A stretch of DNA of 64,000 nt from Mactromeris polynyma. Lineage: Eukaryota > Mollusca > Bivalvia > Venerida > Mactridae. The notes below the pieces were generated by a model that saw only the letters and a program-made list of their open reading frames with translations, was not told where the DNA came from and searched no databases. Of the stretch, positions 35,837-38,242 are shown one piece after another; the stretch's first letter is position 1, and each line of letters begins with the position of its first letter. The position numbers and the translations under genes were made by a program. Location of the stretch: positions 3,906,001 to 3,970,000 of the forward strand of contig JASFXZ010000037.1 of NCBI GenBank assembly GCA_032209605.1. The letters are read 5' to 3'.

Positions 35837-38242
35837 ATGTCAGACAGTGAAGAAAAAAGGAGTTGGAAGAGGGAACGCGATCTGTGTGTTCCCAGTATAG
35901 TACATCAGGTGAGGGGGAAAACGGCCCAGGGAAAGCTGTTTAACCCCAAGGATATTATATACCAACTGGGTTGGGAAGATGTACCGGACAGATTGTTCCG
36001 GGAATCAGTACACGACCAGTACAGACTGGCTGTGAGACTCGGTAACAATGAGTGGATAGGGAAAGCCCGGTATAATGCAGGCTTGAGACAAGCCGGTAAT
36101 CCAAACTGGGTGGAGGAAGTGATGCCAGAGGTACTTGGGGAACGCCCAAAAGATAACCGGCAAAGACCCTCAGTGAGTGAGTCACGGCCTAGGAGCCGTA
36201 GCCCTAGAGATAGAGGGCGTGAATATAGAGGATATGGGCTTAGGAATAACTCAAAGCAGAGAGGAGATACGAATAAAAGGGATCAGTCACAGAGGCAAGG
36301 AGAAGGAAATGAGAGATCACGGCAGGACGGCTGTGAACGAAAAAGAGAACAGGTTAGGAGACCTGGTGAACACAGGAACTCACGGCATCAAAGCTGTGAA
36401 AGGAGGAGGGATGTTCACCTGAGGCAGGAAAGGCACTCGGAGGATAGAAACAGGCAGGAAAGAAGAGAGCGAGAGACCAGGCAGGTGTGTAGGAGGGGGG
36501 CAGAATTGAAAGTGACTGTCCGGCCTACTCATACCAACAAGAAAAGTCAGGTTTGTCCAGCAAAGGGGTGTTGGGCCATGAGTAATCACATCAAACGGCA
36601 TGTGCAGTTCCAGCATATCCCGAAACTCTTTTGGGAGGAGGCCCAGTGTTCCAATACACCAGGGGAACGAGTACTGGCCCTTGGAAATTTGGCCACATGG
36701 ATAGTGGGGGAAGCAGATGTGAAGAAACTCCAGACATTTGCGAACCGACATGTTGGTATCCGTGACAGATCCACTCCAACCGAGTCTGCACAAACGGCCA
36801 TGAGAGCTGTTTGCCAGAGTGCTGGTTGGGAGCTTCCAAGGGTTTTCACACTAACACCCATTAATTCTCCGGCGGCGCTTATACATTGGAGGTTGATGTG
36901 TGTAATGATGGACAATCTGACAAGGTCTCAAAAACAACAATTTCTGACCAATCCTACGGGAACGAGAGTAGATACTCGAAAAGCCAGAAAAAATAAGGAG
37001 GACAAGGAAGACAAGGAAGACGGAAAAGGGGAGAAGGAGGCCAACAGAAACGTCCTTACCTCCTTAAGTCAGACGAGCTCCAACCCAGAACCCATGGAAG
37101 ATAAGGAGAGTTCAGAGGGTGGGGCAGGAGGAGACAAAGAGATGGAGGTGGTAGAAATACTCCAGAATATTTCATTGCTGGAGATTCATAGTAAGCCAGA
37201 CTCGGTACAGACGGCCACGGAAATGGAACTGTTGGCAACGAATAACAAGTCTGAGGCAGCAGAGACAGCTAAGGATCAGGAATTACCAGCAAGTGATAGT
37301 AAGTTGGCCTCGGTACAAACCGCCACGGGAACATCGGTGGAAGAACAGCCGAGAGGCTCAGGTCCAAAAACCTACGCACAGGCAGTGGCATCAACTCCAC
37401 CAATGACAAAGCAGAGGGGAACCACGCGGTCGGGGTTTGACTCGCATTTCCACTTGGACAGAACGGCCCTAGCGCTGTTTAAGCAACCCTGGGTGGAAAT
37501 GAGAAAGATCTGGAAAGTCAAACAGAACCCAGCCCCAGAGTACCCGATCCAAATCATCGGAGGAGTTATGGTGTTCTGTGATCCCGAGAGATATGCTACA
37601 GTGAAGTTCCCGGAGAATTCCAATTTTCGGGTAGCAGTTGGGATACACCCAAAGAAAGTGCATGCCTTTGGACCGAGAGAGGAGGCTATTTTTAAGGAGT
37701 TGATCCACAACCCTCATACCTCAGCCGTGGGGGAAGTGGGATTAGATCACTCAGTGCCCAGAAAAGAGTGGCAGGAGCAGGAGAAGGTGTTACACCGGGT
37801 GTTGGAATATGTAACCACCCAGAAGGCTTTGGTCCTCCATATCCGGGTACCAAAGAACAACCCGGTAGCCTCAGAAGTATATGACAGGTGTAGGGAGATA
37901 GTGAAACAACATTGTTCCCGACAGAAGCCTATCCACCTGCACTGTTTTATGAGCGGCCTCAGAGTACTAAAGGCTTGGAGGACAGACTTCCCGAATTGTT
38001 ATTTTGGGTTTACAGCCAGGGTTACGACCTTTAACCCTAGGCAGCTGCAAGCCCTCCGGGGAGTACCTAGTGATCGCTTTTTGATAGAGACAGATTCTCC
38101 CCATTTACAGACAGCAAAGGCCCTGGTCAACACCCTGGCTTACTTGGGGGACATTGGAGCGGCAGTGGCCAAGGCAAGGAGGGTCCCACTGGGAGCCATC
38201 TTGATGGACACCACGGACAATGCCCGACGGGTTTATCACTGA
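35837..38242 (+). CDS. ORF3: Arg/Ser-rich, Cys/His-cluster protein with C-terminal TatD-type nuclease domain
   Basis: An intact 801-codon frame between pol and the 3' LTR, the place of env in retroviruses, but with no signal peptide or membrane segment. Residues 1-100 form a conserved-looking unknown domain (FNPKDIIYQLGWEDVPDRLF). Residues 105-230 are strongly basic with Arg/Ser and Arg/Glu runs, perhaps nucleic-acid binding or nuclear. C240, C245, H251/H255 and H260 could make one zinc finger. Residues 260-370 are unknown and globular; 370-530 are acidic and low-complexity. Residues 534-801 are a TatD hydrolase of normal length with all metal-ligand motifs: FDSHFHLD (H537, H539), VGIHP, GEVGLD (E633), LHIR (H668), LHCFMSG (H702) and ETDSPH (D753). 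Known TatD proteins are Mg-dependent 3'-5' DNA exonucleases or DNases. I infer a role in cDNA processing or against host DNA/RNA defence. The ATG is the first after the acceptor-like AG. Confidence 0.9.
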   Translation: MSDSEEKRSWKRERDLCVPSIVHQVRGKTAQGKLFNPKDIIYQLGWEDVPDRLFRESVHDQYRLAVRLGNNEWIGKARYNAGLRQAGNPNWVEEVMPEVLGERPKDNRQRPSVSESRPRSRSPRDRGREYRGYGLRNNSKQRGDTNKRDQSQRQGEGNERSRQDGCERKREQVRRPGEHRNSRHQSCERRRDVHLRQERHSEDRNRQERRERETRQVCRRGAELKVTVRPTHTNKKSQVCPAKGCWAMSNHIKRHVQFQHIPKLFWEEAQCSNTPGERVLALGNLATWIVGEADVKKLQTFANRHVGIRDRSTPTESAQTAMRAVCQSAGWELPRVFTLTPINSPAALIHWRLMCVMMDNLTRSQKQQFLTNPTGTRVDTRKARKNKEDKEDKEDGKGEKEANRNVLTSLSQTSSNPEPMEDKESSEGGAGGDKEMEVVEILQNISLLEIHSKPDSVQTATEMELLATNNKSEAAETAKDQELPASDSKLASVQTATGTSVEEQPRGSGPKTYAQAVASTPPMTKQRGTTRSGFDSHFHLDRTALALFKQPWVEMRKIWKVKQNPAPEYPIQIIGGVMVFCDPERYATVKFPENSNFRVAVGIHPKKVHAFGPREEAIFKELIHNPHTSAVGEVGLDHSVPRKEWQEQEKVLHRVLEYVTTQKALVLHIRVPKNNPVASEVYDRCREIVKQHCSRQKPIHLHCFMSGLRVLKAWRTDFPNCYFGFTARVTTFNPRQLQALRGVPSDRFLIETDSPHLQTAKALVNTLAYLGDIGAAVAKARRVPLGAILMDTTDNARRVYH

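What the first reader, a model, noticed from the sequence alone, without database searches (positions are those of the whole stretch)
35837..38242. LTR retrotransposon carrying a complete TatD-type nuclease in the env position
Seen: an intact 801-codon third ORF lies between pol and the 3' LTR and ends in a domain with every TatD motif (HxH at 537/539, GEVGLD with E633, LHIR with H668, LHCFMSG with H702, ETDSPH with D753). Known: TatD family proteins are Mg-dependent 3'-5' DNA exonucleases/DNases in bacteria and eukaryotes (TATDN1/TATDN3). I know of no standard Ty3/Gypsy element that encodes one. Inference: the element captured a TatD gene and fused it to an Arg/Ser-rich region with a Cys/His cluster, which may bind nucleic acid. 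It could trim cDNA ends, resolve RNA-DNA intermediates, or degrade competing DNA.
Basis: partly seen in the sequence, partly recalled or inferred. Interest (0 to 1): 0.92.

Follow-up and report, generated by a model that had tools for sequence, protein, structure and literature searches.

The report
Retrotransposon carrying a TatD nuclease gene
A virus-like jumping element in an animal genome (probably a mollusc) carries an intact gene for a TatD-type DNA/RNA-cutting enzyme where a retrovirus would carry its envelope gene, and related proteins in clams, an oyster, a freshwater mussel and sea urchins suggest the pairing is old rather than an accident.

Summary

It is probably not a one-off. Relatives with the same zinc-finger/helical module and TatD domain occur in Mercenaria, Mya, Dreissena, Saccostrea, sea urchins and unnamed sources; 30 of 35 keep the full catalytic set. 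One database protein (P0039, organism not given) joins gag, protease, an integrase-like stretch and TatD in the same order. In the TatD tree it and the window lie on opposite sides of the main fork, so the ancestor was probably already element-borne.

A strong 3' splice-site-like sequence ends 2 nt before the ORF3 ATG, so a spliced, env-like mRNA is likely. ORF3 is not an envelope. The pol C-terminus carries a PHD finger. This copy's pol is split over several frames. What the nuclease does is inferred, most likely acting on the element's own RNA-DNA or cDNA intermediates. Copy number and dN/dS could not be tested. My searches showed no earlier report.

The parts
29575..29579 (.). 5' copy of target-site duplication ATAGG
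   Evidence: read from sequence, printed
29580..29811 (+). 5' LTR, 232 bp; TATAATA at 29712, donor-like GTG|GTGAGT with GT at 29777
   Evidence: blastn; edges and motifs
29814..29831 (+). primer-binding-site-like stretch beginning TGGCGCTGCGAGCA, 2 nt after the LTR (no tRNA matched)
   Evidence: sequence; inference
30361..31863 (+). gag-like ORF, 500 aa: N-terminal helix-hairpin-helix, PNMA-like stretch, CCHC knuckle
32000..32581 (+). aspartyl protease ORF
   Evidence: PF13975 E 2.1e-12
32728..33417 (+). reverse transcriptase ORF (RVT_1)
   Evidence: PF00078 E 1.4e-29
33423..34937 (+). RNase H and integrase zinc-binding domain ORF
   Evidence: PF17917 E 4.5e-31, PF17921 E 1.9e-20
34944..35483 (+). 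integrase-like ORF; no Pfam hit, named by position, a recalled motif, and 48% identity to the matching stretch of P0039
35638..35772 (+). PHD finger at the C-terminal end of pol (open frame 35485-35781, P0033)
   Evidence: PF00628 E 4.8e-11
35810..35834 (+). 3' splice-site-like sequence TAATAATTATTTCTATATTTTACAG, ending 2 nt before the ORF3 ATG
   Evidence: joint highest pyrimidine count (13 of 18) and most T among 72 candidates
35837..38242 (+). ORF3, 801 aa
35870..36136 (+). ORF3 N-terminal helical domain (about residues 12-100)
   Evidence: pLDDT mostly 75-95
36143..36538 (+). disordered Arg-rich stretch (103-234), pI 11.5
36542..36940 (+). CCHH finger and helical module (236-368)
37436..38239 (+). 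TatD nuclease domain (534-801)
38319..38332 (+). purine-rich stretch (polypurine-tract-like) before the 3' LTR
   Evidence: sequence; inference
38333..38564 (+). 3' LTR, 232 bp, 2 mismatches to the 5' LTR
38565..38569 (.). 3' copy of target-site duplication ATAGG

Best explanation
ORF3 is a genuine, inherited gene of an animal Ty3/gypsy LTR-retrotransposon lineage: a nucleic-acid-binding protein (N-terminal helical domain, Arg-rich stretch, CCHH finger/helical module) ending in a TatD metal-dependent nuclease with all its ligand residues. It is probably made from a spliced mRNA (donor in the LTR, acceptor just before the ATG), as retroviral env is, but it is not an envelope. Most likely it serves the element's own cycle: the finger and basic parts hold it on element nucleic acid, and the TatD domain removes RNA from RNA-DNA hybrids or trims 3' ends during reverse transcription or at integration. 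Shown: element structure, domain identity and predicted fold, conservation of the catalytic set, recurrence with gag and protease in a second protein. Inferred: inheritance across the whole family (about 0.85), nuclease activity (about 0.85), splicing (about 0.6), action on the element's own intermediates (about 0.5; RNA-DNA hybrids in particular about 0.3).
Against: Linkage to gag-pol is known for 2 of 34 tree rows; P0039 is a predicted protein of unnamed source that lacks RT and, by eye, the finger, and BLAST did not support a match to the ORF3 N-terminus. No genomic copies, dN/dS or expression data: the genome search did not complete (8 tries). The RT already has RNase H, so a second hybrid nuclease may be unneeded. 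Two Lytechinus members have changed ligands. Root of the tree uncertain.
Confidence: 0.6

Rival explanations
1. Passenger: ORF3 belongs to a host gene family of finger-TatD proteins that elements picked up once or a few times; it does nothing for the element.
For: Several relatives are annotated as ordinary genes in chromosome-scale assemblies (P0014, P0016, P0028), and their surroundings could not be read here.
Against: P0039 joins the same cargo to a homologous gag, protease and integrase-like stretch in the same order; window and P0039 span the main fork; clusters of 52 to 125 near-identical members; ORF3 intact with its own acceptor while pol is split.
Confidence: 0.08
2. Counter-defence or competition: ORF3 degrades host silencing RNAs or the nucleic acid of competing elements, in trans.
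For: TatD family members have RNA exonuclease and endonuclease activity (passages); a TatD nuclease (QatD) serves a bacterial anti-phage system, and ORF3 scores 65 bits on its model, below the cut-off of 230.
Against: No partner or target seen; nothing in the sequence points to small RNAs; the QatD similarity is that of the TatD family in general.
Confidence: 0.2
3. The TatD fold is kept as a binding scaffold and catalysis is not used.
For: Two Lytechinus proteins have changed ligands (HHDRHN, HHERHN) and keep the domain.
Against: 30 of 35 members, the window included, keep all six residues; P0001 and P0029 merely have gaps there and P0017 an abnormal tail.
Confidence: 0.06

Closest known systems
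TatD-family nucleases (PF01026: E. coli TatD, YcfH, S. aureus 2gzx/6l25, human TATDN1 and TATDN3)
   Different: 18-23% identity to the bacterial structures listed; part of an 801-aa multidomain protein carried by a retrotransposon; the 34 ORF3-type domains form their own clade on a long stem
TATDN2 (vertebrate; R-loop RNase)
   Same: C-terminal TatD domain in a longer protein (stated for TATDN2 in a passage of PMC12709183)
   Different: No TATDN2 sequence was available for comparison; no report seen of TATDN2 in a retroelement
Ty3/gypsy LTR retrotransposons with a third ORF in the env position (errantivirus-like; recalled)
   Same: LTRs, domain order and a third ORF before the 3' LTR with an acceptor in front
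   Different: Third ORF is a TatD nuclease without a transmembrane segment; PHD finger at the pol C-terminus
QatD, TatD nuclease of the bacterial Qat anti-phage system
   Same: TatD nuclease in a genetic-conflict setting; 65 bits on NF041926
   Different: Far below the cut-off of 230; bacterial; other partners

Membership tests
TatD nuclease family (PF01026) | Sequence match to the family profile | tested here: met
   E 2.6e-32, 112.6 bits vs 27, profile 1-253 of 253
TatD nuclease family (PF01026) | HxH, E, H, H, D metal ligands | tested here: met
   H537, H539, E633, H668, H702, D753 present; complete in 30 of 35 members
TatD nuclease family (PF01026) | TatD barrel fold | tested here: met
TatD nuclease family (PF01026) | Metal-dependent nuclease activity | not testable with these tools
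   needs an assay
Ty3/gypsy LTR retrotransposon | Paired LTRs with target-site duplication | tested here: met
   232 bp, 2 mismatches, ATAGG
Ty3/gypsy LTR retrotransposon | Order gag, protease, RT, RNase H, integrase | tested here: met
   the integrase catalytic core itself gave no Pfam hit in this copy
Ty3/gypsy LTR retrotransposon | RT placed with Ty3/gypsy in a tree | not tested
   domain order only
Env-bearing errantivirus | Third ORF with transmembrane segment | tested here: not met
   highest 19-residue hydropathy 1.13
TATDN2 orthologue | Groups with TATDN2 rather than other TatD clades | not tested
   no TATDN2 sequence among hits; none in PDB hits

The most novel reading that the evidence does not exclude
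An undescribed, old and widespread lineage of animal Ty3/gypsy retrotransposons (molluscs, echinoderms, perhaps more) carries, in place of env, its own zinc-finger TatD nuclease plus a PHD chromatin reader at the end of pol, and uses the nuclease on its own replication or integration intermediates. Many 'TATDN2-like' or 'TatD family' gene models in invertebrate genomes and in MAGs of clam symbionts would then be this ORF3, and host TATDN2 and ORF3 might even be linked by descent.
Probability: 0.45. Interest if true: 0.85.

Novelty: new variant of a known kind. Interest (0 to 1): 0.74.

Why it matters
A third ORF in this position is, in the cases I recall, an envelope-like gene. A nuclease there, kept with its catalytic residues in proteins from molluscs and other sources, would mean a retroelement lineage that relies on a second nucleic-acid-cutting enzyme, and purified protein can test that directly. 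It would also warn annotators that some invertebrate 'TatD/TATDN2-like' genes, including some filed under bacterial symbionts, may be transposon ORFs, and it offers a comparison for TATDN2, whose role in germ-cell R-loops was reported in 2025 (PMC12709183, passages seen).

Tried and rejected
Env reading of ORF3: rejected, no transmembrane segment by hydropathy. Of 119 BFVD matches only one had E <= 0.001, a giant-virus protein (Yasminevirus).

Chance ORF: rejected. One-off insertion: made unlikely, not excluded, by P0039 and the tree.

DNA context of relatives: viral contigs scanned three times (4, 14 and 3 pattern matches, none confirmed) and genome contigs once (3 pattern matches, none confirmed; a second scan was allowed and not used). 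Phage records: 8 matched, each covering 25-33% of ORF3. Plasmid records: 62 matched P0010, 12 listed, covering 21-34%. Seven of these (3 phage, 4 plasmid) served as outgroup. The window's own genome could not be searched: the genome search answered 'busy' all 8 times, so copy number and dN/dS are untested. The finger module and N-terminal domain were not folded or searched alone; one domain filled the list, so their folds are untested. ASCIZ finger 4 (PF24761) matched one relative only.

Rows dropped: alignment A1 left out P0002 (lacks most of TatD), P0015 (partial) and P0030-P0032 (distant TatD proteins); P0034-P0039 came later. The tree left out P0001 and P0002. The window row entered the tree with envelope 191-801; columns filled in under 30% of rows were dropped. 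The outgroup rows are not one side of a branch.

A match of the ORF3 N-terminus in P0039 looked likely by eye but BLAST gave only chance-level pieces, so it is not claimed.

Literature: ten searches. Searches required only 2 terms and every paper listed had zero occurrences of TatD/TATDN2, so they say nothing either way; one search held 27 papers, 15 listed. I saw listings, passages of PMC5840709, PMC5408686, PMC12709183, PMC10707325 and PMC3286476, and passages and one section of PMC6962438. None of what I saw describes a TatD-bearing retroelement. Only open-licence PMC papers are held; repeat libraries were not available.

Full report
WHAT IS THERE. ORF3 runs 35837-38242 on the + strand, 801 codons without a stop; 300 base shuffles of the same DNA gave at most 188 stop-free codons. 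Pfam finds TatD_DNase over residues 534-801, profile positions 1-253 of 253, E 2.6e-32.

THE ELEMENT. Comparing 26000-39100 with the window shows two direct repeats near 29579 and 38332. Reading the edges gives LTRs 29580-29811 and 38333-38564, 232 bp, 2 mismatches, flanked by ATAGG on both sides. A TGG-starting, primer-site-like stretch follows the 5' LTR by 2 nt; no tRNA was matched to it. Between the LTRs, in order and on one strand, are a gag-like protein with a helix-hairpin-helix start and a CCHC knuckle, an aspartyl protease, RT, RNase H and an integrase zinc-binding domain: the Ty3/gypsy order. The next ORF (34944-35483) gave no Pfam hit; I call it integrase-like from its position, a recalled motif and its match to P0039. 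Pol of this copy lies in separate ORFs in several frames, through damage or sequencing error. It was not mended or read through.

A PHD FINGER. The open frame after the integrase (P0033, 35485-35781) ends in a PHD finger, PF00628 E 4.8e-11, nearest in sequence to PHF8, CXXC finger protein 1 and BPTF among solved chains. That those read methylated H3K4 is recalled; that the finger guides integration is inference.

RELATIVES. The whole-length search gave 2 hits among 7546 candidates: Mercenaria mercenaria LOC123531129 (P0001, 43% over 82%; its model stops inside TatD) and P0002. With residues 225-801 there were 31 hits at E <= 1e-3 among 8000 scored candidates (cap reached): Saccostrea, Dreissena, Mya, Lytechinus, Strongylocentrotus, many unnamed, and proteins filed under Sedimenticola (P0004, P0007, P0010) and Thiodiazotropha (P0024); one search added P0035. 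The last group is probably host DNA in symbiont bins (inference; that these bacteria live in clams is recalled). Clusters at 90% identity hold up to 52 (P0017, P0026) and 125 sequences (P0037). Of 35 members examined, 30 keep all six ligand residues; P0001 and P0029 have gaps there, P0017 has an abnormal tail, and P0027 and P0028 (Lytechinus) have changed ligands. The host of the window is probably a mollusc because its best named relative is; this is not shown.

THE KEY RESULT. A search with the TatD part of P0003, opened to longer proteins, gave 11 hits among 1876 candidates, P0003 included. One, P0039 (1810 aa, source metaclust, organism not given), holds gag (31% over 95 aa to the window's, E 4e-15), protease (30% over 191, E 8e-32), the integrase-like stretch (48% over 128, E 2e-37) and TatD (35% over 280, E 2e-46), in the window's order. 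It lacks an RT hit and, by eye, the finger; a match to the ORF3 N-terminus was not supported. It may be a fused gene prediction, but it places the same cargo behind a homologous gag and protease in a second, clearly different element.

TREE. TatD domains of 34 family members, 3 distant relatives and 7 bacterial or phage proteins: the 34 are one clade (100/100) on a stem of 1.57 changes per column. Thirty-two of them (94/89) divide into an 8-row side with P0039 (99/93) and a 24-row side with the window (96/92); P0014 (Dreissena) and P0016 (Mya) lie outside or unresolved. A gag-linked member on each side makes an element-borne common ancestor the simplest history. Limits: linkage is known for 2 of 34 rows, and the outgroup did not form one side of a branch.

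ORIGIN. A profile of the family scores YcfH at 116 bits, TATDN3 at 57 and TATDN1 at 51. TATDN2 could not be compared. The donor of the domain is open.

EXPRESSION. TAATAATTATTTCTATATTTTACAG ends at 35834, two bases before the ORF3 ATG. Among 72 candidate acceptors in the element (simple rules) it shares the highest pyrimidine count, 13 of 18, with one other and has the most T. A GTGAGT donor lies in both LTRs (GT at 29777 in the 5' LTR); by a simple consensus count it ties at 7 of 9 with two other sites in the leader region. A TATAATA lies upstream at 29712. Spliced, env-like expression is likely but not shown.

MECHANISM. From passages seen: E. coli TatD is a 3'-5' exonuclease on ssDNA and RNA; TATDN1, TATDN3 and TatD also have AP endonuclease activity; TATDN2 is a Mg2+-dependent RNA exo- and endonuclease that removes R-loop RNA. 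From the anatomy (basic stretch, finger, intact active site) the likeliest role is action on the element's own RNA-DNA or cDNA intermediates; counter-defence remains open, and nothing has been assayed.

NOVELTY. Ten literature searches (listed with their limits under Tried and rejected) showed no TatD-bearing retroelement in what I saw. The giant squid paper lists a 'TATDN2' among non-Hox genes inside its Hox cluster, along with a pogo-element gene (section read), which might be such an ORF (inference). LTR elements with a third ORF are a known kind; this cargo is, as far as I could see, a new variant.

Noticed in passing
35638-35772: PHD finger at the C-terminal end of pol, PF00628 E 4.8e-11; a possible chromatin-targeting device in place of a chromodomain.
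   Followed up: partly
30361-30520: Gag begins with a helix-hairpin-helix motif (PF00633 E 1.8e-6), unusual for a gag as far as I recall.
   Followed up: no
30314-30331 and 35809-35826: The same 14-base stretch TAATAATTATTTCT occurs shortly before the gag ATG and before the ORF3 ATG; possibly related splice signals.
   Followed up: no
ORF3 residues about 510-520 (37364-37396): A short (T/S)(Y/F)A-x-(V/A) motif in the linker before TatD recurs by eye in P0001, P0003, P0007, P0008, P0010 and P0034.
   Followed up: no
38840-39076 and 47019-47255: A stretch of about 240 bp occurs twice at 83% identity, the first copy beside an 88-bp tandem array.
   Followed up: no
48325-53949 (-): An 1874-codon ORF on the minus strand lies over a 111-bp (37-codon) tandem array, so it is probably a by-product of the repeat.
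   Followed up: no
P0027, P0028 (Lytechinus): Sea-urchin members, one named mucin-17-like, have changed TatD ligands: degenerate or repurposed copies.
   Followed up: no
P0004, P0007, P0010, P0024, P0035: Family members filed as bacterial TatD hydrolases of clam-symbiont MAGs, probably host DNA in bacterial bins.
   Followed up: no
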